From positions 16,196,212 through 16,260,211 of the forward strand of contig JASXTE010000008.1 in NCBI GenBank assembly GCA_030280995.1: 64,000 nt of DNA, given 5' to 3'. This document shows positions 6,945 through 29,260 of this stretch, in pieces. Each line of letters starts with the position of its first letter. The first letter of the stretch is position 1. The notes beneath the pieces are model-generated. The model made no database searches. It saw only the letters and a program-made list of their open reading frames with translations, and was not told the origin of the DNA. This DNA is from Hemileia vastatrix. Lineage: Eukaryota > Basidiomycota > Pucciniomycetes > Pucciniales > Zaghouaniaceae. The translations under genes and the position numbers were made by a program.

Positions 6945-8444
6945 TGTCAGCCTGTATATCTCCAGGACTGAGTAAAAAGTAACTATAAGTTATGTTAAAC
7001 ACATGAACTATACATGGGAATAATAAATGAGAGTACACAAATAGTATACATAAGTAAAATTATGATAATACACAAAAAATGCCATTATAACACCTTATAT
7101 ACACGCATATATCCACCTTTTATAGGTCTTATGTACTTAATATTAAGTTGGAGTATGTTAGGGTAATCTTAAGAACCTTAAGTATAAGGCTACATAATTT
7201 TTAAGTACACTTAAAGCTGTTATATTCATTGTTTTATTCAAAAAACAAGAAATGCGCTTTATTTCACTTAAAAGTTGACTATATGCGCTATAAAATTGAG
7301 AATATCGAAATTGCGCTTTGACAGATCAATTGGGCTCATTTAGAACTATTGATTTGGCTATTTAAATGCATAAAAATAACACTTTTCAAATTTGGTGTTT
7401 TTTATGCCAGAAATGGCTTCTGTGTACTGGCCACATACTGCCTGCTTTTTTCCCGTGTGAATAGCTTCATTTTTAGCAAAGTTAGCTTTTTCACACTATA
7501 ATTACCCCACATTCTACGCCCACTGTGGGGAAACACACTAAAATAGGCGACAGGCGCTTATTTAGTGTCCTAGCTTAATTAATAATGCATTGACCCTGTT
7601 TATATGCACTAATTTCATTAATAACCTCACTCTTGGCACTTTATTTCATCACCACGCTTAAATTCGCCTAATTTTAGTCAAGGATTTACCCGTGCAAGCG
7701 CCTGCCAAGAACTGCATGTAGTTACCCCACATCTCACGCTCTTTTTTAAGTTTTTGGGTGGTTTCTCAGTCAATTTTGGTTATTTTTGAATGGGAATTTC
7801 ACGTAGTATAATGTCAGGATTAGCCCCATTATTTCTACAGTCAATCCCCCTTATTATTAAGCTATTATTAACCTTAAAAAGTCTCCTTTAGTCCCTAATA
7901 TTATTGTTTTATATGCATATACTCTCTTTTTGTCTTCTTCTTTAATTTTGATGGATTTCCCTTATTATTTCAGGATTTTGGCGGTTATTACTCTTCTAAT
8001 TATGTCATGGGTCACTGGGAACGTTGATGGGAATGTCTATTAGTTGTTTAGAGGCGTGATTTACTGTGTATTGGGTGGTACATCAAGGGAATCATTGGGG
8101 AACTCAGTGTGTATAAAAGGAGGAGGTTTTTGGGTTGTATTTCTGCATTCTTTATCATTACAATTAACCAATATAACCAAACCAATTACAATACATATCA
8201 ATTATTACTTTTACAAGACTTTTGAATAGTATCTGAATTTATATAATCTATTTTTCTACCAACTATAAAGATTGTAAGCCATATATAAGAATAGTGAGAA
8301 TTTTATTACTGAGACCTTTATATCTGATTATATTTTACAACTTAGTGGATTAGAACTACAGTATTCATATAGGACCATTAAAATCTTCTAGACAACTGAC
8401 TATTCAAGCTAGTTCACGTCCTTTTACTTGACCTTAGCCTGACA
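6945..8444 (+). repeat. Elem1 3' LTR
   Basis: 1,500 bp, from TGTCAGCC to CCTGACA. It holds a hairpin (CCCCACA 7505-7511 with TGTGGGG 7524-7530), several GCGC cores in AT-rich sequence (near 7255, 7286, 7314, 7554, 7699) and a TATA box at 8112. The solo LTR at 19888-21389 is the same family on the other strand. No credible gene lies inside it. Confidence 0.95.
8112..8120 (+). promoter_or_regulatory. LTR TATA box
   Basis: TATAAAAGG followed by GAGGAGG. The same box lies in the solo LTR (20213-20221, minus), Elem8 (55692-55700) and Elem9 (59484-59492, minus), so it is conserved across LTR families; transcription probably starts some 30 nt downstream. Confidence 0.65.
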
Positions 8445-8445
8445 C

Positions 8446-9626
8446 TGTGGTAGCCTAAAGTTTAGTACGGCACCCAAGTATGTAAATGGAGTTATCACGG
8501 CATGCAAGATTGGCGTTATTATTTTTTATAAAAGGGTTTTATTTAATTTATTGGAGTTTAAAATATGAAGAAATTGGTCACGAGTGAATGCCTACACAAA
8601 ACAATTTATTTTACGGAGAAAACTTATTTTTACGGTCTAAAAAATTTATAAGTATTAAGTCGAGTCACTCAAGAACCTTGGGAAATTTTCCCAGAATTTT
8701 TACTATTTTTCTTAAATTTTTAAATGAATTTTAAGGTTTTATAGAAATATTTACGTTTTCAAAAATTACTTAACTTTGATGAATTTTCACGGGGTAATTA
8801 GAGCTGCGCAGACTACTAAAATTAGTTTGGTATGTAAAGGGGAAGTAGCTCTATAATGTGTAATTTTTCTAGATTTTTTATTATGGTTTTAAGGTTCTAA
8901 ATTGAGTCCGGAAGTCCGGACGGACTCCGTTTCCACTCCGTACGGACTCCGTACGGACTCCGCTTTGACTCCGTACGGACTCCGCTTTGACTCCGTACGG
9001 ACTCCGTACGGACTCCGTACGGGCTCCGGATTGACTCTGGAAGAGCTCTGGCGGGGAAAACTTAGGCACGTGACTAGGAATACTTAAGCGCTTCTCAAAC
9101 TCGAAATTGAGAGGGGGGACATATCATACAGCTTAATCATTAACCACCACAGACTCATTTTTTATTACTCAACAAATTAAAATAACTTTTAATACCCTTA
9201 TAACATTATTATTTTTTTTACATAAAATTTTAGAAATACTACTCAACAATTAAAATCACACTTCATACAGGGTATCTTTAGAAAGGTCTTCATCACTGGG
9301 ACTTGATTATTGCTGTCTCATAAAAATTAAAAATATTATAAAAACATAAAAGTCAATCTTTTCAGATCTTTCACTGGTACACCTTAATTGTTGTCATCAG
9401 TATTTCTTTTATCAACAGCCACTCTCTTTAAATCTCAATAAGCGTTAAATATTTTAGAGTTTCATTATTTTTTTTATCAATCAGATCTAAGTAGATTGGT
9501 TAGCTTAGTGATTTAGAATTCCCATTTTGTTATTTTTATTGGAAGGACGGGGTTTTCAGCTAAATCCACATATCTCCTCCGGATTCTGCTTACAGCAAGG
9601 CAACTGTAAGAGTTTACCTTACCATA
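8446..9626 (+). repeat. Elem2 5' LTR
   Basis: 1,181 bp, TGTGGTA at the start and TACCATA at the end, an imperfect inverted pair. It matches 18324-19459, which is 45 bp shorter mainly because it holds fewer minisatellite units. No clear TATA box was picked out. Confidence 0.95.
8904..9040 (+). repeat. GC-rich CGTACGGACTC minisatellite in the Elem2 LTR
   Basis: Repeats of an 11-nt unit (TACGGACTCCG), some spaced by CTTTGACTCCG, in otherwise AT-rich DNA. Each unit contains the self-complementary CCGTACGG and several CpG sites. The 3' LTR copy (18780-18870) has fewer units. Small frames on both strands here are by-products of the repeat. Confidence 0.9.
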
Positions 9627-9628
9627 GT

Positions 9629-9645
9629 TGGCGCCCAACGTGGGG
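9629..9645 (+). other. Elem2 primer-binding site, tRNA-Lys type
   Basis: TGGCGCCCAACGTGGGG begins two bases after the LTR. It equals the sequence known as the tRNA-Lys(1,2) primer site of several retroviruses. Elem4 has the same site with two changes at 45475-45491. Confidence 0.85.
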
Positions 9646-9697
9646 TTCGATTTCTCTAGCTTTCTTTAAAAGACTTACTTGGATCAAGAACGTTATT

Positions 9698-9760
9698 AGC
9701 CTGCAAGAGGCTTATTCTCTGGAACTCTAATTGGATTTTTGTTATTGGCCTGCAAGAGGC
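9698..9760 (+). other. Two leader hairpins in Elem2
   Basis: AGCCT-GCAAG-AGGCT (9698-9712) and GCCT-GCAAG-AGGC (9748-9760) are two copies of one small hairpin in the gag leader. They resemble the stem part of the downstream hairpin-tail motif but lack its TAAACTGG tail. Confidence 0.55.
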
Positions 9761-9771
9761 TTGTTATTTTA

Positions 9772-9816
9772 ATGGTTGTTAATGCTTTTCTTATGTTTTG
9801 GGATGTCTTCTACTAG
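9772..9816 (+). CDS. Possible upstream ORF overlapping the gag start
   Basis: An ATG at 9772 opens 14 codons ending TAG at 9816, in a frame different from gag and running past the likely gag ATG at 9803. If translated it would lower gag initiation. It could equally be chance. Confidence 0.2.
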   Translation: MVVNAFLMFWDVFY

Positions 9817-11008
9817 TGGAACTGCTGTGTTGGCTGCTGGTGTACCTGTTAGGGCATCAGTAAGGATTGTATCTTGGGTTGGGCCCAAGTTTTCTGGAGA
9901 TGATTTAGAAGGATTTTTAAATAGGTATGAAACTGCAGCTGCGATTGATGGTGCTTTACCTTTGGATATGGTGAAGCAGATTAGGTTCTTTATTTTGGAC
10001 AGAGAGGTGGAAAAGGAGGTTATTTCTATGGATGGTTATAAAGATCAAGATTGGAGAAAGCTCAAGATGGAAATGGAAAAAAGGTGGCCAAAAGTTTATT
10101 CATTGGAGGATCTAAAGGATATAGCTAGGAAATGGGAATCAAAAGGTGGTGTAACATCTCTGCATCAGTATCATCAGTTTATGGTTGAATTTCAGGTGGT
10201 TCTGGATTATTTGTTGGAGTATGAAATTTTATTTCATGATAATGCATCAAAGTATATTTTTTGGGATGCTATGGGGGAAAAGGTTAAGAAAGATGTTTTG
10301 ATGGTGCTTATTAATGCGAATTTAATGAAGGATTGCCCAGATGGAGAAACTAGGATTCCTGGTATGGAGGTGCTAAAGAAGGCTATTTTAGAACATCTGG
10401 ATACTCATAATTCTGTTGATTTGGACTCTGGAAAAGAGGGTTTTCTTGCTCAAGAGATAGAAGAGGGCGGTTTAGAAGAATTAGCTTCTGTTGAATTTCT
10501 GGATTCAGCCATTCCTGAAGATTTTGTCCAGCCTGAAGATATTATTTTTGTTGACTCTTCTGTTTGGAAAGAAGAGGTTTCTGAAGATGAAGATATTATT
10601 GTCACTGATGAAGAAAATTTGGATGTTGGGGATAATTTTGTTTTGGATAATTTGGAATTTGATTTAGAGGAATATTTACCTCAGGTTTTGTCTTCAAAAG
10701 CGGAGACTGTCTGCAATTCAGATGTGGATATGGTTTATGAATCTGGTATATGTATGGTGGATTTGTTTCAATCTCAGGAAGAGATTTTTATGGAGGATAT
10801 GGTTTTTCCTGCACTAATAGAGAGTGTAGTGCCATTGGACAATAGGGTGCATAAAGTGGATGCACTCATATTTTGGAAAATTGTTGTTTATTTTTTATGT
10901 CCTTTTATAGGACAAATTCTGGGAATTTATTTTTGGGTTTTATGGAATCGGTGGATAAGCCCTTGGGGCAAAATTATGGATTATCTCCAGGGGATATCAA
11001 GAATTTAA
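9803..11008 (+). CDS. Elem2 Gag-like protein
   Basis: 401 codons from ATG 9803; an in-frame ATG at 9782 would add seven residues. Residues about 25-190 form a capsid-like domain (FSGDDLEGFLNRYE, then KWES) shared with the decayed Elem4 gag at 44950-45330. Residues about 190-350 are very acidic. Near the C-terminus (about 355-384) is a hydrophobic stretch rich in Ile, Phe, Trp and Leu that could span a membrane. No zinc knuckle is present, which is unusual for a Gag. The protein would build the virus-like particle. A hairpin motif copy follows the stop directly, and pol starts 56 nt downstream in another frame. Confidence 0.85.
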   Translation: MSSTSGTAVLAAGVPVRASVRIVSWVGPKFSGDDLEGFLNRYETAAAIDGALPLDMVKQIRFFILDREVEKEVISMDGYKDQDWRKLKMEMEKRWPKVYSLEDLKDIARKWESKGGVTSLHQYHQFMVEFQVVLDYLLEYEILFHDNASKYIFWDAMGEKVKKDVLMVLINANLMKDCPDGETRIPGMEVLKKAILEHLDTHNSVDLDSGKEGFLAQEIEEGGLEELASVEFLDSAIPEDFVQPEDIIFVDSSVWKEEVSEDEDIIVTDEENLDVGDNFVLDNLEFDLEEYLPQVLSSKAETVCNSDVDMVYESGICMVDLFQSQEEIFMEDMVFPALIESVVPLDNRVHKVDALIFWKIVVYFLCPFIGQILGIYFWVLWNRWISPWGKIMDYLQGISRI

Positions 11009-11010
11009 TT

Positions 11011-11550
11011 CCTCCGAAATGAGGATAAACTACCTAAACTCGGCTGAAATTTTTTTTTATTGTTATGTCTTCAATTTATTCAGGATTCAAATTATTATGG
11101 TTGCCCTCATTTTTTGGGGTAGCAGGGGCTGATCGCTCTAATGTTGTAATCTCTCCTCAGGATGAGATCCCGGATTGCAATAGGTCAGCTCACTTGGAGA
11201 TAATTCAAGTGGATTCTCAATTATTTTCTGTTAATATTACTTTGGAGTGCAAATACGTTTTGGACTTTTCTATATGTTTATTGGATTTACCCGGTTTTTC
11301 TATTAATTTTAAAAACGGTGAAAAAGGCAAAATGGGCCAAATTAGGTTGGATAAAAATTGGAAGGGTATGTTTGAGGACCTCCAGCAAGAGGTTAAACTG
11401 CAATTATCACCTTCTATTTTGGACCTCCAGCAAGAGGGTAAACTGCAAAAATTACATCAAAATCCAATAAAAAATCTCAGTATAATTAAAACACAACAAA
11501 ATAATTTTTGTGAAAATTCAATTCCGGTCCTCCAGCAAGAGGTTAAACTG
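11011..11550 (+). other. Four hairpin-tail motif copies between gag and early pol
   Basis: Copies at 11011-11032, 11378-11400, 11422-11444 and 11527-11550. Each has CCTC pairing with GAGG around a six-base loop (CGAAAT or CAGCAA), followed by TAAACT. The first is non-coding; the other three encode D/V-L-Q-Q-E-V/G-K-L in the pol frame. Confidence 0.75.
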
Positions 11551-14500
11551 CCGACTTTCTTTACGGGTGATTTACTGTTGGATAAGGGAAGCAAAGGTGT
11601 TGGAAAATCTGTTTATAAATTAGACGAGGGAAAGGAGAAAAGGGTAAAATTTAAAAACAAAATAAAATATTTTTCTAATTTTTCTTATTCCGATTCTGAC
11701 GATGAAGAAGATTCATTTGATGAAAGTTTTAATGGCGATGTTTTACCTCAAGTTAATTTAGATGTGGACGCAGCCAAATATAAGAAAGTAGCAAATAAAG
11801 TTCGACCTATTAATGAACCGCTACCTGCTGAATTAAATCCACCTTTGAGAAGACCAAGGTTATCAAGAGATCCTTATGAAAGTCCCTTGGTAAAGAATCC
11901 GCCTGAATTTTCTGAGACGTCAAGAATCACTTTTGAGAGACTGGGTGTTGTTAATTTTGGACCTGATGGTTGGTTGTCTGGAGAAGAGAAGAAGTTGTTG
12001 TTGGATGTGATGGTCAAGCGAGAGAAGGCCATTGCTTTTGTAGAAGAGGAGAGGGGTGTGTTGAAGCATTCCTATGGGGAGCCTTACAAGATTCCTGTGG
12101 TATGTCATGAACCGTGGCAGCAGAAACCGATTCCTATTCCGGCTGCATTAAAAGAAGCCTATATTGAAGTTGTCAGAGAACGGATACGCACTGGACTGTA
12201 TGAGCAATCAACGTCAAGTTATTCTAGTCCTGTATTTTGTATCAAGAAACCGAATGGCAAGCTTAGAGTTGTTCATGATCTTAGGGAATTAAATAGGGTT
12301 ACAATAAAGGATGCTGGGATACCACCTAGTGCTGAGGAGTTTGTTGAAGCGTTTGCAGGGAGAGTGTGTTATGGTTTGGGAGATATTATGGGTGGATATG
12401 ATGAGAGAGAGTTACATCCGGACTCAAGACCTCTCACTACATTTGATACACCACTTGGACGTTTACAGTTAACAAGATTACCTCAAGGAGCAAAAAATTC
12501 GGTTGCAGTTTATCAAGCTCAGATGGCTTGGATCCTTCAAGATGAAATTCCACAATATGCTGGAATCTTTATAGATGATGGAGGAATTAAGGGACCAACA
12601 ACCGACTATGATAACCAGGTGTTGGAAGAGAATCCCGGGATACGCAAATTCATTTGGGAGTTTGCAATTACTTTAGAAAGAATCTTGTTTCGAATTGAAG
12701 AGGCTGGTTTAACTATTTCAGGTTCAAAATTTTCCTGTTGTGTGCCAGCCTTAGAAATATTAGGCCATGTGGTATGTAGAGAGGGTAGGATTATGTCCAA
12801 GAAGAAAGTTAACAAAATTCAGTCCTGGCCAAGACCCAAGAATACGACCAAAGTTAGAGGGTTTTTAGGCGTTTGCGTATATGTTAGAATGTTTATCAAG
12901 GACTTTTCTTCATTGGCAGCTCCATTGAGACGGTTAACGAGAAAGGATGCAGACTGGGAGTGGGATGAAGAGTGTGAGAAGGCGTTTGTGAAGTTGAAGG
13001 AGGTTGTGGGGAAGGATTTAGTCCTGCACAAGTTAGATTATGGAAAAGATGCTGGTAGAATTTATTTAGCAGTTGATTCAAGTCAGGTTGCAGCTGGGGC
13101 GGTTTTGTCTCAGACGGATAAAGCTGGTTACATCAGGCCAGTTAGGTATGAATCTGTAGTATTTACTGAGGTCGAATCAAGATATTCTCAACCAAAATTG
13201 GAATTATGTGGTGTGGCGAAAATACTGAAGAAACTTCAGCATATTTTGTGGGGGCAACATTTTGAGTTGCAAGTGGATGCGAAATCGTTAATCCAGATGA
13301 TTAATTCCCCAAGTTTACCGAATGCACCCATGACGAGATGGGTAGCTTTTATTCAACATTTTTCATTTGATTTAGTTCATAAGCCTGGCAAAACTTTTAC
13401 TATGCCAGATGGTTTATCAAGGAGACCACCCACTGAAGAAGATTCAGACTCAGAAGAGTTCGATGAAGATATACCTATTATCAAAGCCAGCACTAAAGGA
13501 GCTGAAGACTTTCCATACCTCCCCCATGAGGTTAAACTGGCAGGACTATTGTGTTTAGATTATGGTGATGATGACCTCCACCAAGAGGATAAACTGGAAA
13601 ATAGTTTTTATGTTAATAAAGGTGTAGATAAATTCGGCAGAGAGGAGGTAGAAGAAGATGTGGTGTATGTAGAGGAAAATGGATTGGTAGTGTGGGATAG
13701 TAGTAAATTAAGGAATGGTGTATATGTTGGAGAATTAGAGAGCTTAAATAAAAAGGTGGATAAAGAGAAAGAGGTATTTTCAAATACGGTTTTCGAAGGA
13801 TCCAAAGGTTCAGAAGAAAAATGTCGACATAGCTTGATTAAAGATTTATTTAGGGGTCAACGATTATTGGCTCATTCATGTGCAGGTGATATTGGTGATA
13901 GAGAAGTCCCTATTGATGTTATATTAATCGATTTTCAAGATGAAGTCTGGGGTCAGACTGGTTTTTATTTTTTGTTAGTCAAATATTTGTTGACTTTAGA
14001 GAGGCCAGAAGATTGTGAAGACGATGAATGGGTGGCTATCAAGAGGAAGTCATCTACGTTTTACCTATCTGGTCGACGTTTAATGAGGAGGAGGTATCCA
14101 AATCCTCAAGTAGTTATAACTCAACAGAAGGGGCAAGAATTAGTTTTGAAATCACTGCATGAAGATCTCGGGCATAGAGGCGTTGGAGAAACATTTAGAA
14201 GAATTTCTGATCGATTTTGGTGGCCTGGCATGAAGATGGCTGTTAAACAGTGGGTTCAGTCATGCGAAGAATGTCAAAGACGAAGTTATTTAAGGCCAAA
14301 AGAACCTGGACGCGCGACCGGTGAATATACGCTCTTTGGAAGAGTTAGTTTAGATGCCGTTCATATAAAAGAGGGACGGTATAAATATTTAATTGTGGCC
14401 AGAGATGATTTATCTGGTTGGGTAGAGGCAGCGCCTCTTATTAATTTAACTGCCAAAAATGTGGCAGAATTTTTTTTGAATAATTGGGTATATAGGTATG

Positions 14501-15243
14501 GGGTGATGAAGTTGGTAACGGTAGATGGAGGTCCTGAATTTGGGACAGAGTTTAAAGAGGCCGTATTGAAAGTTGGATCAAAGGTTAGGGTAGCAACCCC
14601 ATATTATCCTGAAGCTGAAGGCATGGTTGAAAGAGGGCATCAAGTTATTAAGGATGCTTTAGTTAAAATGTGTGGGACAAGTGCCGAAAAATGGAGGCAC
14701 TATTTACCTTTAGTTTTATTTGCTGATCGAATCACTGCCAAAAGGACGACCGGATTTTCACCTTATGAACTTGTTTTTGGACAGAAAGCAGTTTTAACGG
14801 TTGATTTAGAAGCTGAATCATATCTTGGAGTTGACTGGGACACGGTCAAAACTACTGAAGAATTATTGTGTGCAAGAATGATGCAGCTAGAAAAGAAAGA
14901 AGAATATTTAGAAAAGGCATATTCGCGGATGATGAAGATCCGAAATCAATCAGTCAGATATTGGGATGAGCGGTTGGCACATCGATTAAGGAAACCTTTG
15001 AACCCAGGAGATATGGTCCTGGTGTATAATAGGAGTTTGGAAAGTCAGTGGGGAAAAATGTTTGCAGATAGGTGGAATGGACCGTATAAAATCAAGGAGC
15101 AAGTTTCCGGCGGTTCATATGTGCTAGAAGAGTTGGATGGAGTAGTCTTGAAGAAGAGGGTAGCTGCCGATCAAGTGAAACGGTTCTATCCTAGAGGCAC
15201 CAGGAGTGCCGAAGTCTTCCTCCGCAATGAGGATAAACTATGA
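11065..15243 (+). CDS. Elem2 Pol: RT, RNase H, integrase
   Basis: 1,392 codons from ATG 11065. Residues 1-290 hold no recognised domain; the first 20 are hydrophobic and acidic tracts follow. RT spans about 350-580, with FIDD at 502-505 replacing YIDD but keeping both Asp. RNase H has Asp671 and lies about 660-790. Integrase has zinc-binding His from about 1032 and Cys near 1067, then Asp1097, Asp1154 and Glu1189. The C-terminus has a WNGPYKI (GPY/F) module and no chromodomain. I see no DTG or DSG protease motif. Six copies of an LxxE(V/D)KL peptide, each a hairpin motif in RNA, lie at about 105, 120, 155, 818, 837 and 1385. The last is the C-terminus itself. Confidence 0.93.
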   Translation: MSSIYSGFKLLWLPSFFGVAGADRSNVVISPQDEIPDCNRSAHLEIIQVDSQLFSVNITLECKYVLDFSICLLDLPGFSINFKNGEKGKMGQIRLDKNWKGMFEDLQQEVKLQLSPSILDLQQEGKLQKLHQNPIKNLSIIKTQQNNFCENSIPVLQQEVKLPTFFTGDLLLDKGSKGVGKSVYKLDEGKEKRVKFKNKIKYFSNFSYSDSDDEEDSFDESFNGDVLPQVNLDVDAAKYKKVANKVRPINEPLPAELNPPLRRPRLSRDPYESPLVKNPPEFSETSRITFERLGVVNFGPDGWLSGEEKKLLLDVMVKREKAIAFVEEERGVLKHSYGEPYKIPVVCHEPWQQKPIPIPAALKEAYIEVVRERIRTGLYEQSTSSYSSPVFCIKKPNGKLRVVHDLRELNRVTIKDAGIPPSAEEFVEAFAGRVCYGLGDIMGGYDERELHPDSRPLTTFDTPLGRLQLTRLPQGAKNSVAVYQAQMAWILQDEIPQYAGIFIDDGGIKGPTTDYDNQVLEENPGIRKFIWEFAITLERILFRIEEAGLTISGSKFSCCVPALEILGHVVCREGRIMSKKKVNKIQSWPRPKNTTKVRGFLGVCVYVRMFIKDFSSLAAPLRRLTRKDADWEWDEECEKAFVKLKEVVGKDLVLHKLDYGKDAGRIYLAVDSSQVAAGAVLSQTDKAGYIRPVRYESVVFTEVESRYSQPKLELCGVAKILKKLQHILWGQHFELQVDAKSLIQMINSPSLPNAPMTRWVAFIQHFSFDLVHKPGKTFTMPDGLSRRPPTEEDSDSEEFDEDIPIIKASTKGAEDFPYLPHEVKLAGLLCLDYGDDDLHQEDKLENSFYVNKGVDKFGREEVEEDVVYVEENGLVVWDSSKLRNGVYVGELESLNKKVDKEKEVFSNTVFEGSKGSEEKCRHSLIKDLFRGQRLLAHSCAGDIGDREVPIDVILIDFQDEVWGQTGFYFLLVKYLLTLERPEDCEDDEWVAIKRKSSTFYLSGRRLMRRRYPNPQVVITQQKGQELVLKSLHEDLGHRGVGETFRRISDRFWWPGMKMAVKQWVQSCEECQRRSYLRPKEPGRATGEYTLFGRVSLDAVHIKEGRYKYLIVARDDLSGWVEAAPLINLTAKNVAEFFLNNWVYRYGVMKLVTVDGGPEFGTEFKEAVLKVGSKVRVATPYYPEAEGMVERGHQVIKDALVKMCGTSAEKWRHYLPLVLFADRITAKRTTGFSPYELVFGQKAVLTVDLEAESYLGVDWDTVKTTEELLCARMMQLEKKEEYLEKAYSRMMKIRNQSVRYWDERLAHRLRKPLNPGDMVLVYNRSLESQWGKMFADRWNGPYKIKEQVSGGSYVLEELDGVVLKKRVAADQVKRFYPRGTRSAEVFLRNEDKL
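13517..13597 (+). other. Two hairpin-tail motif copies in pol
   Basis: ACCTC-CCCCAT-GAGGT (from 13517) and ACCTC-CACCAA-GAGG (from 13574), each followed by a TAAACTGG tail. They fall in the RNase H to integrase spacer, in the same codon phase as the other pol copies. Elem4 keeps the first one at 27012-27036 (minus). Confidence 0.75.
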
Positions 15244-15434
15244 CATTTATCAAATTTTATGGATTCCTCCGCAATGAGGATAAACTATGAAATTTCTTAA
15301 ATTTTATCAACTCCGAAATGAGGATAAACTACAATTTTAATGATATTGATGAAATTTTATGGCTACCTCCGCAATGAGGATAAACTATGGTATCTACGAA
15401 ATTTTATGGATTCCTCCGCAATGAGGATAAACTA
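15219..15434 (+). repeat. Tandem array of five hairpin-tail motifs at the pol stop
   Basis: Copies start at 15219, 15266, 15311, 15366 and 15413. The core is CCTCCGCAATGAGG followed by ATAAACTA; spacers of 22-34 nt are AT-rich and alike (AAATTTTATGGATT). The first copy encodes the last residues of Pol; the TGA stop follows its tail at once. Confidence 0.9.
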
Positions 15435-15648
15435 TCTTCTTTTTATCAAAATAATTTACTATCATTACACTGCATATGGGCGACAAAACTATGATGAAAC
15501 TTAACGAAATTCAAGAAGACCTTCTTAGAAATTTTAAAAAACTTAAAATTCTTAAAATATGGGTGAAGATAGTGTTGGAAAACTTTTTAAAATTTATTGG
15601 AAGAAGTGTTCACAGGGGAACCTTCTTAATTTAATATTGGCAAGTGTG

Positions 15649-15689
15649 GGGGTAATTGATGGGCTGGCTGCTCTATACACAATTACCCC
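15649..15689 (+). ncRNA. Large 3' UTR hairpin with a perfect 10-bp stem
   Basis: GGGGTAATTG (15649-15658) pairs with CAATTACCCC (15680-15689) around a loop containing GGGCTGGCTGCT. Elem4 has the same hairpin twice on the minus strand (25047-25088 and 25300-25334); there the stem reads AACTG/CAGTT where Elem2 has AATTG/CAATT, a compensatory change, and in the first copy the loop core GCTGGCTGCT is kept. This is a cis-acting RNA structure candidate, not an independent gene. Confidence 0.6.
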
Positions 15690-15756
15690 ATAATGTTCGT
15701 TTCCAAAATTTTCCCTTTTTCTAGTTGAATCCTGGCTTTGTCTTTTAATTATAGGA

Positions 15757-15780
15757 AGTCCACTAAGACTATAAACTGGA
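15757..15780 (+). other. Single hairpin-tail motif copy
   Basis: AGTC-CACTAA-GACT followed by ATAAACTGG. It is the first copy with the AGTC/GACT stem, lying between the tandem array and the large array. Confidence 0.75.
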
Positions 15781-15902
15781 ACGAATCAAGAGACACTGCT
15801 CTCAACGCCGGATTCAAGATTTTCTTATTTTGTTTTTGATTTTTTTTTATGTTAGATTGTGATTTCTTTTCTTTAATATATATTATGAATTATTGTAAAG
15901 GT

Positions 15903-16059
15903 GATGCTCACTGGTGGTCTCTAATCATTTTTATAAATTGGAGGGAGCCCACCCAGTGATCATCATTATAAAAATTATCTTCTAAAAACTTTCATTTATT
16001 TTATTTTATTTTCAATTTCTCAAAATTGTGTAGCCACATCAAGTTGCACTTGGATGTGG
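15903..16059 (+). other. Two further inverted repeats in the Elem2 3' UTR
   Basis: An imperfect 19-20 nt inverted repeat pairs 15903-15921 with 15945-15964 (core TCACTGG with CCAGTGA). A tight hairpin at 16034-16059 pairs CCACATCAAG with CTTGGATGTGG around TTGCA with one bulge. Sequence alone supports folding; function is unknown. Confidence 0.55.
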
Positions 16060-16246
16060 GTATGATGTCGAGGGTACGGCTCATCAAATGGCCGGGGGGC
16101 ATCTTTTAAAATTTTACTTTTTAAATTTTTTTTTATTATTATTACTTTTTTTTATCTTTCTTTTCACATTCGTTTATCTTTCTTTAAAAATTAAATTTTA
16201 ACTTTTATTTCAAAAAATATCTTTTCTAAAATCATTTATTTTAAAT

Positions 16247-16550
16247 TAAAAATAAAATTAAAAAATAAAAATAAAAATAAAAATAAAAATAAAAAATAAA
16301 AATAAAAATAAAAATAAAAATAAAAATAAAAATAAAAATAAAAATAAAAATAAAAATAAAAATAAAAATAAAAATAAAAATAAAAATAAAAATAAAAATA
16401 AAAATAAAAATAAAAATAAAAATAAAAATAAAAATAAAAATAAAAATAAAAATAAAAATAAAAATAAAAATAAAAATAAAAATAAAAATAAAAATAAAAA
16501 TAAAAATAAAATAAAATAAAATAAAAATAAAATAAAATATTAAAATAAAA
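16247..16550 (+). repeat. (AAAAAT)n microsatellite
   Basis: About 300 bp of nearly perfect six-base repeats with slight interruptions at both ends, inside the Elem2 3' UTR. Confidence 0.97.
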
Positions 16551-16684
16551 AAAAAATTAATTAGTTAAATCAAAATTATTATATTTCTCAGTTATATTTT
16601 TTTAGTTTTATTCATTTAGTTTAGACAGGAAACAGGGTCTAGGGGAACTCAATACCTATGGGATTTTACTTCAAGACATCTGTT

Positions 16685-17657
16685 AGTCCTCCAAGACTTT
16701 AAACTGGCTACTGTTCAAAACGTTCTTTAAGGTTTTTTTTTACACGTATTTTGGATCTGTTTAGTCCTCCAAGACTTTAAACTGGCTACTGTTCAAGACG
16801 TTCTTTAAAGTTTTTTTTATTTACGAATTTTGGATCTGTTAGTCCTCCAAGACTTTAAACTGGCTACTGTTCAAGACATTCTTTACGGTTTTTTACACAT
16901 ATTTTCGATCTGTTAGTCCTCCAGGAATTTAAACTGGCTAATTTTCAAGACTTTCATTAAAGATTTTATATTGGAGCTGTTAGTCCTCCAAGACTTTAAA
17001 CTGGCTAATTTTCAAGACTGTCATTTTAGATTTTATCTTGGAGCTGTTAGTCCTTCAAGACTTTAAACTGAATTTCAAGGATGATCAAGATTTTATGGAT
17101 ATTTTTGGAGACGGATTTTTTTTTTTTTTTTTTTATCAATAAAATGTTAGGTCCACCAAGACCTTAAACTGGAGTGTTATCAAATGTTAGGTCCACCAAG
17201 ACCTTAAACTGGACTATTATCAAGTGTTGGGTCCACCATGACCTTAAACTGGATTTCTTATCGATTAAATGTTTGGTCCACCATGACTTTAAACTGGTAG
17301 TTCATTCATTGTTTAGTCCACTATGACTTTAAACTGGAAAATTAATATCTGCAGGATAATTCAACATTCATTGGACCACTATGGCCTTATACTGGATTAC
17401 TTGTCGATCAAATGTTTGGTCCACTATGACATTAAACTGGATTATCAAATTTATTCAATCTTTGGTCAAGCCTAGGCCTTACTTAGGAATATATCAAGAT
17501 ATTTATGCACTTAAACGATCTTTGGTCCACCAAGACCATAAACTGGCAATCGATTATATGTTTGGTCTACCAAGACTTTAAATTGGAATGTCAATCTTGT
17601 TTGGATAACTCAATTCAATCTTTTAATTTATCACTGTCCCCTAAGACTCTAAACTGG
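16685..17657 (+). repeat. Array of 16 hairpin-tail motifs in the Elem2 3' UTR
   Basis: Copies start at 16685, 16763, 16841, 16915, 16982, 17049, 17150, 17190, 17230, 17275, 17315, 17373, 17418, 17524, 17564 and 17635; a degenerate one lies near 17464. Stem classes are AGTC/GACT (first half) and GGTC/GACC (second half), with a few G-U pairs and four weakened stems (16915, 17373, 17418, 17635). Loops fit YNNNAW (CTCCAA, CACCAA, CACTAT). The tail TTAAACTGG is the most conserved part. Spacing varies from 40 to about 106 nt. Small frames across this region are by-products. Confidence 0.9.
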
Positions 17658-18313
17658 TTATTCAATTATTTCTGGAATTGGGTGCTGATAGCTTTAGGAG
17701 GTTAAAACTTTAGGTGGTGATGATGCTAAAGAAAGCATAATGGTTAATTAGGTGAAATTTGTGGCGCTTTAACATGGTCTAAAGTTAAAATTATTATTGG
17801 AAGCCTGGCAAAAGTATTTTATGGGTTTGCTGTATAGAAAAGTTTGAAAATTGTGATGAAGGAATCAGAAGTTAGGATGGTAGTTGGATTTTAGGGAATG
17901 ATTTTTTTTTAGTGCCTCATAGTTAGGCCATTTTTTTGGTGTGAAGCTTGGAGGACCTTATGGCGAGATTGGAATCATAGAATTCGGCTCAGTGGGGGGC
18001 CCTATGAGGTTGGAATCAGGAGTATTCGGCTCATAGGAAGATCCACTCTCTCAATGCTGTGACAAGAAGGAAGACTGGTTAATGGGAGTCTGAAGGGATT
18101 CAAACCTTGCTCTCGTAGTGGAATTATCACAAGATTTATATTATTTTATTTTATGTTATATCAAGCCAGAGAAGAAAGAAAAAAACATTTATGTTGAAAG
18201 TTAAAGAAGACCAGCTAAAACAAATTTATCAAATTATTTTATTAGAAAAGATAATTCTTTTGGAATTGCTCAACCACTTATTCAAAGTTATAAGAATGGG
18301 GACATTCTCGATT
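17658..18313 (+). other. Distal Elem2 3' UTR
   Basis: No convincing coding frame. It holds a short direct repeat with GGAATCA and ATTCGGCTCA near 17968-17993 and 18010-18031. Nothing else stands out. Confidence 0.5.
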
Positions 18314-18323
18314 GGAGGGAGGA
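18314..18323 (+). other. Elem2 polypurine tract
   Basis: GGAGGGAGGA lies directly against the 3' LTR start TGTGGTA. Confidence 0.85.
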
Positions 18324-19459
18324 TGTGGTAGCCTAAAGTTTAGTACGGCACCCAAGTATGTAAATGGAGTTATCACGGCATGCAAGATTGGCGTTATTAT
18401 TTTTTATAAAAGGGTTTTATTTAATTTATTGGAGTTTAAAATATGAAGAAATTGGTCACGAGTGAATGCCTACACGAAACAATTTATTTTACGGAGAAAA
18501 CTTATTTTTACGGTCTAAAAAATTTATAAGTATTAAGTCGAGTCACTCAAGAACCTTGGGAAATTTTCCCAGAATTTTTACTATTTTTCTTAAATTTTTA
18601 AATGAATTTTAAGGTTTTATAGAAATATTTACGTTTTCAAAAATTACTTAACTTTGATGAATTTTCACGGGGTAATTAGAGCTGCGCAGACTACCAAAAT
18701 TAGTTTGGTATGTAAAGGGGAAGTAGCTCTATTATGTGTAATTTTTCTAGATTTTTTATTATGGTTTTAAGGTTCTAAATTGAGTCCGGAAGTCCGGACG
18801 GACTCCGTTTCCACTCCGTACGGACTCCGTACGGACTCCGCTTTGACTCCGTACGGGCTCCGGATTGACTCTGGAAGAGCTCTGGAGGGGAAAACTTAGG
18901 CACGTGACTAGGAATACTTAAGCGCTTCTCAAACTCGAAATTGAGAGGGGGGACATATCATACAGCTTAATCATTAACCACCACAGACTCATTTTTTATT
19001 ACTCAACAAATTAAAATAACTTTTAATACCCTTATAACATTATTATTTTTTTACATAAAATTTTAGAAATACTACTCAACAATTAAAATCACACTTCATA
19101 CAGGGTATCTTTAGAAAGGTCTTCATCACTGGGACTTGATTATTGCTGTCTCATAAAAATTAAAAATATTATAAAAACATAAAAGTCAATCTTTTCAGAT
19201 CTTTCACTGGTACACCTTAATTGTTGTCATCAGTATTTCTTTTATCAACAGCCACTCTCTTTAAATCTCAATAAGCGTTAAATATTTTAGAGTTTCATTA
19301 TTTTTTTTATCAATCAGATCTAAGTAGATTGGTTAGCTTAGTGATTTAGAATTCCCATTTTGTTATTTTTATTGGAAGGACGGGGTTTTCAGCTAAATCC
19401 ACATATCTCCTCCGGATTCTGCTTACAGCAAGGCAACTGTAAGAGTTTACCTTACCATA
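18324..19459 (+). repeat. Elem2 3' LTR
   Basis: 1,136 bp, nearly identical to the 5' LTR apart from fewer GC-rich repeat units. The base after it begins Elem3 gag on the minus strand. Confidence 0.95.
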
Positions 19460-19882
19460 ACACTTTCCAAGTATAATGTTGGTTGTCCAGTGAAAAAGAT
19501 TCATACCACATTAAAGCTACATTGGAAAATAAAGAAATTAATTTAGAGACAATTTCTTCATCTGGAAATTTATAAGAGTTTTTCAGATTATCAATTCTCT
19601 GAACAAAGTGTTGCCAGTCAGATGAAGAGTCACCATCAAAGTGGGATATTGATCCAGTTTGTACCAATTTTTCTGGCTACTGGGATGGTTCATCATTTGG
19701 TTGGAATTATTTAACATTAATAATTCTTGAAGTTTAGCCAGGTGTTCAAAAATTTCATTATTTACAGAAAAAGTTGGTTCATGGCCATTAAAAGAGTTTT
19801 TGCTAGTAGAAAAAGATTTTACAGACTCATTGTCAGTTTTTTTAATGGCTGAAATATGGGGAAGAAAAGAGTTTCTCTGTTC
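19460..19882 (-). pseudogene. Elem3 gag, capsid part
   Basis: Minus-strand reading gives the capsid-like block DGDSSSDWQHFVQRIDNLK, matching Elem1 about residues 200-245 and Elem8 58370-58530. It is cut at 19460 by Elem2. Frame breaks occur near 19640. Confidence 0.85.
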
Positions 19883-24836: not shown

Positions 24837-25046
24837 GGTCCAGTCCAAAAAAAAGATTGCTGAGTGTTATCCCTCCAATAAGTAAAAATTATGGGATTCC
24901 ACCAGTGATACAACACCAATCCAAAGAAACAAAAACATAAGGAGCCAGTCCAAGCCAGTTAAAATTCATAGAAGACTAAAAACCTGAATAAAAAAGAGAA
25001 CTAGAATTAAACTAGGACAAAACCAAAGGTCTGAGACAGAAATTCT

Positions 25047-25334
25047 GGAGTAACTGTTCTAAAAAGCAGCCAGCTCATCAGTTACCCCCACACTTTCCAA
25101 TATAAAGTCTAAGGCCCCCCCTTGGTACCCTCTATCAAAAACACAACATCTAACACAAACATCCACACAGTGAGACAAACAGCCTTTGAAGACCAAAGAA
25201 AATTAATTTAAACTCATAGAGGACTTAAAAACTGTTAAAAGAAACCAATTCTAAGGTTCAAACAAATAAAGAGAAAGGTTTGGAAGTAGAAATTATTGGG
25301 TAACTGTTCATGGAGAAGTAATCCCATCAGTTAC
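25047..25334 (-). other. Two copies of the large UTR hairpin in Elem4
   Basis: Inverted repeats at 25047-25056/25079-25088 and 25300-25306/25328-25334 share the GTAACTG/CAGTTAC stem. They are homologous to 15649-15689 of Elem2 with a compensatory base pair. The flanking sequence 24837-25430 is non-coding 3' UTR. Confidence 0.6.
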
Positions 25335-25459: not shown

Positions 25460-28400
25460 TATCCTCCTTTCACAGTCACTCTTAAACACTTCTAGTGCCG
25501 CTAGGATAAAACCTCTTCAATTGATCTTCAGCCACTCTTTTCTTTAAAACAGCACCATCCAACCCTTCTAAATATAAGAACCTCCAGAATCCTGAGATCT
25601 AACTCTGTAAGGTCCATTTAACTTTTTAGAAAAAATGTTTCCCTAAAGACTCTCCAAGCTTCTTATATCCACACCAACACAAAAAAATTAGGCTTTAAGG
25701 TGTTCCTGAGTCTATGAGCCATATTCTTTTTGCAGTATCAGACTGATTTATTTCTAATTTTCAAAATTCTAGAGTATGCCTTCTCTTTTCATCTCTCTTT
25801 AAATTCCAACTGCTTTATCCTGGCACAGAGAAAACCTTCTCTTCAGTGTACTTCATCCCAATCAATTCCAAGATAAGAAAATGCTTCCAAGTCCACTGGT
25901 AAAACTGATTTCTGTCTAAATATTGGCTCATATGGACAGTTTCCAGTTTTCCTCTTCACAGTGACTCTATCCAAAAGTATTACCAAGGGCAAGTAATGCC
26001 TTCACTTTTCAGAACTATCTCCACACATATTCACCAAAGAATTCTTGATAACTTGATGTCCTCTTTCAACCATGCCTTCAGCTTCAAGATAATAAGTTGT
26101 GGCCACTCTGACCTTTGAAACAATTCTAAAAACAGCATAATTGAATTAAGCACCAAAATTTGGCCCACTATAAATAGTCACCATTTTCATCAATCCATAT
26201 CTATATACCCATTCCTTCTTGAAAAATTTATCCACATTTTTAGCAGTCAAATTAACCAGAGGCATTTCCTGAACCCAACCACATAAATCATCCCTGGAAA
26301 TAAGCAGATATTTATGCCTACCCTCTTTGATATGTAAATTATCAAGGCTGAATCTTCCAAACAAAGCTTATTCACAAGTAGTATGACCAATTTCTTTTGG
26401 TTTCAAGTGACTTCTCCTTTGGAATGCTTCACAATATTGAACCCACACTGTACATCCAACTTCATACCAGGTCACTAAAGTCTGTCTTCTAATCTTCTAT
26501 AAGTCTCCACAAAGCCTCTATGACAAAGGTATTCATAAAAAGATTTCAACACAGCTTCTTGAACCTTCTTCTGAGTCAATAACACTTGAGGAATTGGATG
26601 CTTCCTCCACATCAATATTCTACCAGAAACATAGAGACCAGGACTTTTTCTTCTGATTGCCAGCCAAGTTTCATCATCAAAACTATCTAGCCTCTCTAAG
26701 GTCAACATATATTCAAACATAATGAAATAAAGCTCAGATTGACCCCAGTTCTCATCTTCAAAATCTAACAAAACAGCATTGAAGGGTACAACCTTGCATC
26801 AAAATCACCAGTATGCACATGAGCCACTTGACCAGCCCACTCAGATCACCAATATTTGAATTTTGGCACATACTTCTCTTTTTTTGAAGCCTCAGAGAAT
26901 CTAGTTCACCCAAACAAACACCATTTTCCAAATTTGATCCATCCCAAAAAACAGCCCCATCTTCATCAACAAAAACAATCTGATCACCAGAATATAGATC
27001 AGATCCAGCCAGTTTAGCCTCTTGGAGGAGGGCAGAAAAATCTTCAGCATCTTTTGTGAAGTTTTTAACCACTGGAAAGTCTTCATCAAACTCTTCAGAA
27101 TAAGAATCTTCATCTGTTGGTGGCCTCCTTGATAATACATCAGGAATAGTAAACGTTTTTCCTGGCTTGTGTATCAAGTTAAAAGAAAAATGTTGAATAA
27201 TTTCCACCCAATTAGTAATTGAAGAATTTGGAAGACTAGGTGTATTAGTCATCTTAAGCAAGGATCTCACATCCCCCAGAAGCTTAAAATGCTGACCCCA
27301 AAAAAAAGTCTGTAGCTTCTTCAAAATATTTACTACACCACATAACTCCAATTTAGGCCGAGAACACCTAGCTTTCACCTCATTAAAGAAAACTAACTCA
27401 TACCTTACTGACCTTACCCTTATATTTTTATCCTATTGAGACAAGAAATCACCAGAAATAATAAAACTTGATTCCACTGCTAGATATACTTTTTCAGAAC
27501 CAACACCATAATACAATTTTTGATGCACAATATCTTCACCAACAACTTTTTTCAACTTCTGGAAAGCTTCATCACACGTTCCAGTCCATTTCCAATATGC
27601 ATCTTTTCTGGTTATTTTCTTCAAAGGTGAAGCCAACAAAGAGAAATCCTTAATAAAACTCATGACATACACACACACACACCCTCAAACCCCCTTACTT
27701 CAGTAGTATTTTTAGTTCTTAACCATGACTGAATTTTATCAATTTTTATCTTTGCAATAATCCTTCCCTCCTTGCACACAACATTACCCAGAATTCCCTA
27801 TGCAGGAACACAAAAATACAATTTTTAGCCAGAAATAGTGAAACTTGCTTCTAGATTCTGAAAAACACTCTCTCTAGATCTATTGTATTTTTCCAAAAAA
27901 AACTCCTTATACCATGGTTTTACTTCAACACCTCATTAATATAATCAGTAGTTGGACCTTTAATTAAATTATCATCAATAAAAATACCAGCATGAGTAAG
28001 AACCTCATCCTGTGAAATCCATGTCATTTGTGCTTGATAAATTTCCAATGAATAAGTTGCTCCTTGAGGTAATCTAGTGAGTTGAAATCTTCCCAAATGA
28101 GTCTCAAAATTTGTGAGAGGTCTTAAATCCACATGAAGCCACCTCTCATCATAACATCCCATAATATCTTCCAAACCATAACACACCCTTTCAGGAAAAT
28201 CTTCAACAAAATACTCTGCACTAGGTGGCATTTCAGCATCCTTTATTGTGACCCTATTCAAGGCTCTAAGATCATTAAACACACTCAAATCTCTATTTTG
28301 CTTCTTCACATAGAAAACAGGACTATAATAACTAGATGTTGACTATTTACATAACCCAGTCATGACTCTTTCCCTAACAGTAACCACAAAATTATCTTTG

Positions 28401-29260
28401 ATAGCAGCTGGAATTAGAATTGGTTTGATTTTTCAAGGCTTATAGAAAACCACAGGAATAAAGTAAGGTTCCCCATAAGAGTATTTCAACATACCCCTTT
28501 CCTCTTCAACAAATGTCACCGCTTTCTCCCTCAGCACAATAATGTGCAGAAAAGACTTCTTTACCTCATCAGAAAACCACCCATCAGGACCAAAATTAAC
28601 AACTTTCAACCTTTTCACAGTTACTCTAGCAGTTTCCACAAATTCAGGAGGATTCTTTACCAGAGGAGTACACTACTTATTTCTTGATAAATGAGGTCTA
28701 TTCAACAAAGCATTCAAGCCAACTGGAAAAGGCTCTTTTAAAGGACTAATCTTCTGAGTTACCTTCTTGTATTTAGCTTCTCTATCTTCAACTTGAGAGA
28801 TCTTCAGGAATTCTTCATCACCATACCTTCAACAAAAACCAAGGGTTTTTCCATTGCTCACATTTTTGGCCAAGGTAATGTTTTTTGAAAGGTATAGAAG
28901 AAACCCTAGCAGTGCCAAATTGGGAGAACTTACTTTTATTCCCAAATCTCACCACTCCAAAGATTTTTCTTAAATTAAGATATTCATCTTCACTTCCAGC
29001 TTCTAAAACTTCAAATCTTGATCCATCTTCAGAGCCACATCTTCTTAAATTGTGCAGTTTAACCTCATTCTGCAGGTCCGGAAATTGATCTTGCTGATCT
29101 TCACAAAAAAAAAATTTTCTTCTTTCTTCAATATCTTCACATTTTTTTTCATTATCTTCTTGAATTATGTTGAGATTTTTTTCTTCTTTTCTTGAGTTTT
29201 CTTCTGACCTACAAAAATAACCAGGGGTTTCCCAAATTCTCACAGGTATGGCCAAGGTAA
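25460..29260 (-). pseudogene. Elem4 pol remnant
   Basis: Pieces in Elem2 Pol order, read right to left: N-terminal region with LQNEVKL (about 29050), RT start (28433-28639), RT core with VFNDLRALNRVTIKDA (27920-28309), RT thumb (27433-27678), RNase H with SRPKLELCGV (26758-27378), linker and integrase zinc region (26475-26771), integrase core (26146-26364) and GPY-like tail to about 25480. Stops and frameshifts separate them. In the integrase core the second catalytic Asp is lost (YSGP where Elem2 has VDGGP). Confidence 0.9.

What the first reader, a model, noticed from the sequence alone, without database searches (positions are those of the whole stretch)
11011..17657. A repeated hairpin-plus-tail motif in Elem2 whose stem covaries
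Seen: about 28 copies of N4-YNNNAW-N'4 followed by one base and TAAACTGG (or TAAACTA). Stem classes differ (CCTC/GAGG, AGTC/GACT, GGTC/GACC) yet stay paired, while loop pattern and tail are held. Copies occur in non-coding DNA after gag, inside pol, at the pol stop and in 3' UTR arrays. Inference: selection acts on an RNA (or foldback DNA) structure with a single-stranded tail, perhaps for Gag binding, packaging, nuclear export or dimerisation. I know of no described retrotransposon element of this form. Neighbouring copies arose by duplication, so fewer than 28 are independent.
Basis: partly seen in the sequence, partly recalled or inferred. Interest (0 to 1): 0.88.

Follow-up and report, generated by a model that had tools for sequence, protein, structure and literature searches.

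The report
Repeated mini-pseudoknot in fungal retrotransposon RNA
A young virus-like jumping gene, most like those of rust fungi, carries 28 copies of a 23-letter motif that evolution keeps foldable as a tiny RNA hairpin, probably a pseudoknot, in both its coding and non-coding parts, most likely as a label by which its RNA is recognised.

Summary
Elem2 (8446-19459) is a young Ty3/gypsy element closest in protein to rust-fungus elements. It holds 28 sense-strand copies of a 23-nt motif, 11011-17657; a dead relative in the window, 69% identical in pol DNA, holds at least four more, three at matching places. The motif is far better conserved than its flanks, is held at nucleotide level inside pol, and its stem stays paired through three sequence classes.

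New here: the 'single-stranded tail' probably pairs back into the loop. Positions 7-9 match 21-23 (CCA/TGG, GCA/TGC, TCA/TGA, or CTA/TGG with a wobble) in 22 of 28 copies, a minimal H-type pseudoknot. Six copies, at the gag end and pol stop, cannot form it. Support is covariation only: 163 of 236 unrelated hairpins could form some 3-bp loop-tail helix, so I rate the pseudoknot about 0.6.

Elem2 lacks the CCHC nucleocapsid and protease seen in several relatives, and its Gag is acidic. Recognition of the full-length RNA by a partner element's Gag or a host protein fits better than binding by its own Gag (inference). No described family was found in Rfam or the paper listings seen. The genome-wide test could not run.

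The parts
8446..19459 (+). Elem2, Ty3/gypsy-type LTR retrotransposon; 4-bp repeat ACAC on both sides (8442-8445, 19460-19463)
   Evidence: LTR match, flanks and LTR divergence, RT/RNase H/integrase domains
8446..9626 (+). 5' LTR
   Evidence: 4 substitutions in 1136 aligned bases against the 3' LTR, 45 gap columns
9629..9645 (+). putative primer-binding site TGGCGCCCAACGTGGGG
   Evidence: position just after the LTR; tRNA not identified
9782..11008 (+). gag ORF (open from TTG 9776; first ATG 9782, another at 9803): capsid-like part matches rust elements; no CCHC knuckle; acidic; hydrophobic stretch near the C terminus
   Evidence: tests used the 396 residues from codon 9818
11065..15243 (+). 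pol ORF (RT, RNase H, integrase); no protease found
11011..11033 (+). motif copy just after the gag stop, CGAAAT/TAC class (S1 only)
11379..11401 (+). motif copy in pol N-part, GCA/TGC pseudoknot
11424..11446 (+). motif copy in pol N-part, GCA/TGC pseudoknot
11529..11551 (+). motif copy in pol N-part, GCA/TGC pseudoknot
   Evidence: aligns with 29054-29076 of the relative
13518..13540 (+). motif copy in the RNase H-integrase spacer, CCA/TGG
   Evidence: aligns with 27009-27031
13575..13597 (+). motif copy in the RNase H-integrase spacer, CCA/TGG
15219..15435 (+). five copies (15219, 15266, 15310, 15366, 15413), the first overlapping the pol stop; CGNAAT/TAY class, S1 only
15649..15689 (+). stem-loop alpha, GGGGTAATTG...CAATTACCCC, 67 nt before the next motif copy; present twice in the relative with a T-A to C-G change in the stem
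15757..15779 (+). motif copy, AGTC/GACT stem, CTA/TGG (U-G wobble)
16685..17071 (+). array of six copies (16685, 16763, 16841, 16915, 16982, 17049), AGTC/GACT; 17049 has the compensated TCA/TGA
17150..17657 (+). array of ten copies (17150, 17190, 17230, 17275, 17315, 17373, 17418, 17524, 17564, 17635), mostly GGTC stems
18313..18323 (+). putative polypurine tract TGGAGGGAGGA
   Evidence: position just before the 3' LTR
18324..19459 (+). 3' LTR
29054..29076 (-). motif copy in the dead relative, pre-RT region (one S1 mismatch, one S2 mismatch)
27009..27031 (-). motif copy in the relative, RNase H-integrase spacer, intact S1 and S2
25203..25225 (-). degenerate motif copy after the relative's first stem-loop alpha
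24955..24977 (-). degenerate motif copy after the relative's second stem-loop alpha; aligns with 15757

Best explanation
The motif is a cis-acting structure of the element's sense RNA: a 4-bp hairpin (positions 1-4 with 11-14) whose loop bases 7-9 can pair with tail bases 21-23 to close a minimal H-type pseudoknot (S1 4 bp, L1 2 nt, S2 3 bp, one junction base, L3 = N-UAAAC). Shown by computation: the copies, their conservation against the flanks, nucleotide-level constraint inside pol, and pairing that is kept while sequence changes. Inferred: a protein reads this fold with its conserved UAAAC strand to recognise the full-length element RNA (packaging, or delivery to the assembly site), with many copies giving avidity.
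For: Motif identity 0.86-0.97 against 0.33-0.64 for the 15-bp flanks in the four groups of neighbouring copies examined, 23 copies in all (17373 was left out of its group). Six of six in-pol copies use Leu CTC (10 of 136 Leu codons in pol, six of them in the motif), GAG and AAA, while loop codons change the amino acid. On 24 distinct rows of 32: S1+S2 pair in 90.5% of cells against 73.6% shuffled and at most 46.5% slid; S2 alone 88.9% against 76.8%, covariation 0.295 against 0.151; 0 of 500 shuffles reach these. S2 pairs best of 28 loop-tail placements scored. With each sequence type counted once, S2 p is 0.005-0.007. Within three arrays (21 copies), 5 of 11 changed copies change both members of a pair (1.0-1.4 expected, p 0.001-0.005; slid pairings 0-1). 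Matching copies in the relative. Peptide PDLxNEVKL shared by the relative's 29076 copy and metagenome protein P0014. No nucleocapsid or protease segment matched Elem2 below E 0.1 by tblastn; LTRs differ by 4 substitutions. Papers: Ty3 packaging signals are not precisely defined, but UTRs and POL matter (PMC4974528, PMC11381356; passages).
Against: Six of 28 copies (11011, 15219, 15266, 15310, 15366, 15413) cannot form S2. Some 3-bp loop-tail helix is possible in 163 of 236 unrelated hairpins, so S2 rests on covariation, with few independent events and a register chosen after looking. Not all measures exceed shuffles: number of pairs changed on both sides (252 of 500 shuffles reach it for S1+S2, 255 for S2) and further pair types (393, 184, and 493 for S1) do not. 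Column pairs outside the structure, 2-14 and 14-23, score higher covariation than 7-23, so relatedness inflates the scores. S1 counted by type is not significant (p 0.20-0.24). Of the five within-array co-changes only 17049 and 17315 restore a standard pair. Predicted S1 formation is partial, mean 0.40 against 0.14 for 235 background hairpins. No copy was found in the LTRs, 5' leader or gag, where retroviral packaging signals usually lie (general knowledge). For Ty1, a role of its pseudoknot in encapsidation could not be demonstrated (PMC4974528, passage). Nothing here shows any protein binding the motif.
Confidence: 0.4

Rival explanations
1. The RNA structure is real, but its use is mRNA stability or translation: a chain of small pseudoknots in the 3' UTR works like the upstream pseudoknot domain of tobamo- and related plant viruses, or slows exonucleases.
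For: 17 of 28 copies lie in the 3' UTR between stem-loop alpha and the 3' LTR, 16 of them in two arrays; five more sit at and just after the pol stop. The upstream pseudoknot domain of TMV is described as a 3' UTR element important in replication and translation (PMC4683447, abstract start in a listing).
Against: Five copies lie inside pol, where such a role is hard to see. No tRNA was found in the window and no Rfam family reached its gathering score in Elem2; a diverged tRNA-like end could be missed.
Confidence: 0.2
2. The RNA structure is read by a host factor (export, localisation, silencing escape) and has nothing to do with Gag.
For: Elem2 Gag is acidic (pI 4.3, C-terminal half net -35) and shows no zinc knuckle, so an outside protein is likely needed in any case.
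Against: No host protein is known to me to bind this fold; hosts were not searched.
Confidence: 0.2
3. The motif acts as double-stranded DNA: a site for a DNA-binding protein, as the Su(Hw) site cluster in Drosophila gypsy (recalled).
For: Clustered short repeats near retrotransposon ORFs are a known insulator design (recalled, not tested).
Against: Three unlike stem classes stay self-complementary, and S2 crosses S1, which a dimer site does not explain. 25 sense and 0 antisense core matches, though array duplicates share orientation.
Confidence: 0.08
4. Selection is on the peptide LxxExKL in pol, and the 3' UTR arrays are inert duplicates of coding sequence.
For: All six in-pol copies share one frame. 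Among the best 120 of 964 homologues, the heptad recurs outside the RT lead in P0014 (twice) and P0015 (once).
Against: Non-coding copies are the more numerous, have their own stem classes and are far better kept than their flanks; rare CTC is used 6 of 6 times. The same heptad search also hit 13 proteins at an unrelated conserved LLPxExKL stretch, so the heptad alone is weak evidence.
Confidence: 0.06
5. A neutral minisatellite: recent tandem duplications without function.
For: Many copies do lie in tandem arrays.
Against: Flanks have diverged while the motif has not; copies sit at matching places in a relative 69% identical in pol.
Confidence: 0.04

Closest known systems
H-type pseudoknots of luteovirus size (for example the beet western yellows virus frameshift pseudoknot)
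   Same: Order S1-L1-S2-S1'-L3-S2', short L1, 3-bp S2 and an A-rich L3 beside S1 (recalled; the PMC6007934 passages mention loop-stem contacts and base triples in it, not the lengths)
   Different: S1 one pair shorter (recalled); many copies; no slippery heptamer before the in-pol copies
Upstream pseudoknot domain of tobamo- and related plant viruses
   Same: A chain of small pseudoknots in a 3' UTR
   Different: Those stand before a tRNA-like end (recalled); here copies also lie inside pol and the RNA is a retrotransposon's
Dispersed packaging signals of single-stranded RNA viruses (PMC6281560, highlights in a listing)
   Same: Many small structures with a shared recognition pattern scattered through a genome RNA
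   Different: Protein binding is not shown here; copies are clustered and none was found in gag; this is an LTR retrotransposon
Ty1 5' pseudoknot and predicted Ty3 GAG and POL pseudoknots (PMC4974528, PMC11381356; passages)
   Same: Pseudoknots in LTR-retrotransposon genome RNA
   Different: As described there they are single structures, not a repeated 23-nt unit
Ty3/gypsy elements of Puccinia (PCANC_01042, MJO28_009519)
   Same: RT/RNase H region 71% identical; capsid part 30-33%; the P. coronata protein has one LxxExKL heptad between protease and RT
   Different: They keep the zinc knuckle and protease motif; their DNA could not be examined for the motif

Membership tests
Ty3/gypsy LTR retrotransposon | paired LTRs with flanking target repeat | tested here: met
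   (4-bp repeat ACAC)
Ty3/gypsy LTR retrotransposon | RT, RNase H, integrase in that order | tested here: met
Ty3/gypsy LTR retrotransposon | aspartic protease and CCHC nucleocapsid encoded (autonomous element) | tested here: not met
   none found in Elem2; protease remnant found in the relative
H-type pseudoknot | loop-tail helix crossing S1, supported by compensatory change | tested here: inconclusive
   for; 6 of 28 copies, and part against
H-type pseudoknot | folds as such in solution | not testable with these tools
   needs probing, NMR or melting
-1 frameshift signal | slippery heptamer a few nt upstream in a frame that extends an ORF | tested here: not met
   none before the six pol copies; AAATTTT stands 4-7 nt before 4 of 28 copies, all after the pol stop
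Upstream pseudoknot domain | chain of pseudoknots before a tRNA-like 3' end | tested here: inconclusive
   chain present; no tRNA by ARAGORN and no Rfam match at gathering score, but neither excludes a diverged tRNA-like end
Dispersed packaging signals | bound by the capsid protein and needed for packaging | not testable with these tools
   wet experiment
Rfam families | match to any of 4227 models over 8446-19460 | tested here: not met
   7 matches up to E 5, best E 0.33, all below gathering scores; one (snoR639, E 0.4) overlaps the last array at 17278-17366

The most novel reading that the evidence does not exclude
Elem2 is a parasite of its own family: having lost nucleocapsid and protease, it amplified a family-specific pseudoknot (28 copies, against four recognisable ones in the decayed, once protease-bearing relative) to win packaging by the partner's Gag. 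The repeated pseudoknot would then be a dispersed, avidity-based packaging signal in LTR retrotransposons.
Probability: 0.2. Interest if true: 0.85.

Novelty: new variant of a known kind. Interest (0 to 1): 0.66.

Why it matters
How LTR-retrotransposon RNA is selected for packaging is an open question; for Ty3 the signals are not precisely defined although UTRs and POL matter (PMC4974528, PMC11381356, passages). A short, countable, repeated structure in just those regions could be removed, added or moved one copy at a time, which makes the question directly testable. It would also be a case of a minimal pseudoknot used as a modular repeat.

Tried and rejected
Frameshift reading: rejected, no slippery site before the pol copies. 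Known RNA family: none at gathering score. tRNA: none in the window. Other loop pairing for the CGNAAT class: within about 40 nt on either side, 4 of 6 copies have no 4-6-bp partner with at least one G-C pair, the other two only upstream ones. Relatives elsewhere: IMG/VR by protein, by alignment and by two motif patterns (0 and 1 contigs, the one not inspected); GTDB contigs by alignment and by pattern (4 single hits in bacterial MAGs, about what my own arithmetic gives for chance; not inspected). Homologues of the pol N-part alone: none at E 1e-3. Homologues of the P0014 spacer: only P0014 and P0015. Papers: of nine answered searches, six asked about retrotransposon RNA structures or related elements; the rows listed (8 to 15 of 25 to 147 papers each) showed no repeated pseudoknot or hairpin element of this form in an LTR retrotransposon. 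The other three were for comparisons. Only listings were seen, except passages of PMC6007934, PMC4451515, PMC4974528 and PMC11381356.

My note 1 gives 27 exact copies and rough LTR ends; one search gives 26, and the ends used here.
Full report
What is there. Elem2 is an 11.0-kb LTR retrotransposon at 8446-19459 on the + strand. Its LTRs (8446-9626, 18324-19459) differ by 4 substitutions in 1136 aligned bases plus 45 gap columns, and ACAC flanks it on both sides, so it inserted recently. It has a gag ORF and a separate pol ORF with RT, RNase H and integrase. Over RT/RNase H its best protein relatives are unnamed metagenome sequences (up to 75% identical); the best named ones are Puccinia proteins at 71-72%, besides one from a MAG labelled Sphingobacteriaceae at 71% (best 120 of 964 listed). 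The host is therefore probably a rust or near relative (inference). A second element of the same family lies on the minus strand at about 24.9-30.6 kb, 69% identical in pol DNA and broken by many stops.

The motif. Twenty-six copies with an exact tail word and two with one change lie in Elem2, all sense: one just after the gag stop, three in the pol N-part, two in the RNase H-integrase spacer, one on the pol stop with four tandem followers, one 67 nt after a 3' UTR stem-loop, then arrays of six and ten. Chance would give 0.2 at the score that 26 reach. A core pattern has 25 sense and 0 antisense matches in the element. A covariance model finds the 28 and four copies in the relative; the next match in the 64 kb has E=1 (the 32 copies are its own training set).

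Why it is selected. In four groups of neighbouring copies (23 copies; 17373 left out) the motif is 0.86-0.97 identical while its 15-bp flanks are 0.33-0.64 identical. Inside pol the six copies all read CTC nnn naw GAG gnt AAA CT(g/a). CTC is 10 of 136 Leu codons and six of the ten are these; the middle codons change the amino acid (Q, P, H, R, N). In the relative, copies align with 11529 before RT and with 13518 in the RNase H-integrase spacer, and the 3' UTR stem-loop plus motif module is present twice, with a compensated T-A to C-G change in its stem. The remnant at the relative's pol stop keeps the GAGGATAAA word but not the stem.

The fold. Stem S1 stays paired through CCTC/GAGG, AGTC/GACT and GGTC/GACC, with G-U intermediates. 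The tail is not random: bases 21-23 are TGG where loop bases 7-9 are CCA or CTA, TGC where they are GCA, and TGA in the one copy (17049) where they are TCA. Written as S1 plus S2 this is an H-type pseudoknot. On 24 distinct rows of 32, 90.5% of cells pair, against 73.6% in shuffles and at most 46.5% when slid. S2 alone pairs in 88.9% and covaries at 0.295 against 0.151, and it pairs best of the 28 loop-tail placements scored. Counting each sequence type once, the S2 match has p 0.005-0.007, but the S1 outer pairs only 0.20-0.24. The fairest test compares array members with their own array consensus (21 copies in three arrays): 5 of 11 changed copies changed both partners of a pair, 1.0-1.4 expected, p 0.001-0.005, and 0-1 in slid controls. 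Only two of these five restore a standard pair (17049, 17315); 15310 changes 7 and 23 together without making one, 17373 and 17635 change an S1 pair without restoring it.

What speaks against the pseudoknot. The six copies at the gag end and pol stop have A at both 8 and 22 and cannot form S2. A 3-bp loop-tail helix in some register is possible in 163 of 236 unrelated 4-bp/6-nt hairpins of the element, and in this exact register in 18 of 236, so only the covariation counts. Some covariation measures (number of pairs changed on both sides, further pair types) do not exceed shuffles, and two column pairs outside the structure covary more than 7-23, a sign of shared descent. I give the RNA-level element about 0.85, the pseudoknot about 0.6, and the packaging or localisation role about 0.35 (judgement).

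What it may do. Of 12 homologous proteins checked, six (P0007, P0012, P0013, P0014, P0015, P0034) carry a CCHC-like knuckle and five (P0007, P0013, P0014, P0015, P0048) a D(S/T)G protease motif; several of the rest are fragments or begin late. Elem2 has no match below E 0.1 to five nucleocapsid and five protease segments of these, in six frames, while the relative has a protease remnant (E 6e-11). Elem2's Gag has pI 4.3 over the 396 residues tested. It has nevertheless moved recently. The economical reading is that another element supplies nucleocapsid and protease and that the shared motif is the label. Its places, pol and the 3' UTR, agree with regions reported as needed for Ty3 RNA localisation and packaging, whose signals are not precisely defined (PMC4974528, PMC11381356; passages). 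Against it, the one retrotransposon pseudoknot tested there, Ty1's, could not be shown to act in encapsidation.

Limits. No binding, folding or packaging was measured.

Noticed in passing
8915-9028 and 18793-18862: Both LTRs hold tandem copies of the palindrome TCCGTACGGAC, 10.4 in the 5' and 6.4 in the 3' LTR, a length difference between otherwise nearly identical LTRs.
   Followed up: partly
15905-15962 (relative 24913-24849): A second 3' UTR stem-loop (CACTGGTGG...CCACCCAGTG in Elem2) foldable in both Elem2 and the relative, with the stretch ATTGGAGGGA kept.
   Followed up: partly
about 29345 and 28935, minus strand: The relative holds two copies of a module reading KVSxxNxAxL...SKxLP or similar, like two or three repeats between protease and RT in P0014 and P0015; nature unknown.
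   Followed up: partly
9818-11005: Elem2 Gag has a hydrophobic stretch (residues 350-368 counted from codon 9818) and a very acidic C-terminal half, unusual for a Gag.
   Followed up: partly
16243-16557: A 315-bp (AAAAAT)n-like tract in the 3' UTR, between the stem-loops and the first motif array.
   Followed up: no
15243-15412: AAATTTT heptamers stand 4-7 nt before four of the post-stop motif copies; probably duplication of AT-rich spacers.
   Followed up: no
1720-6402 and 60290-63967: Two further Ty3/gypsy pol ORFs, the second with a chromodomain; the covariance model found no motif copy there (a weak hit at 3518, E=1).
   Followed up: no
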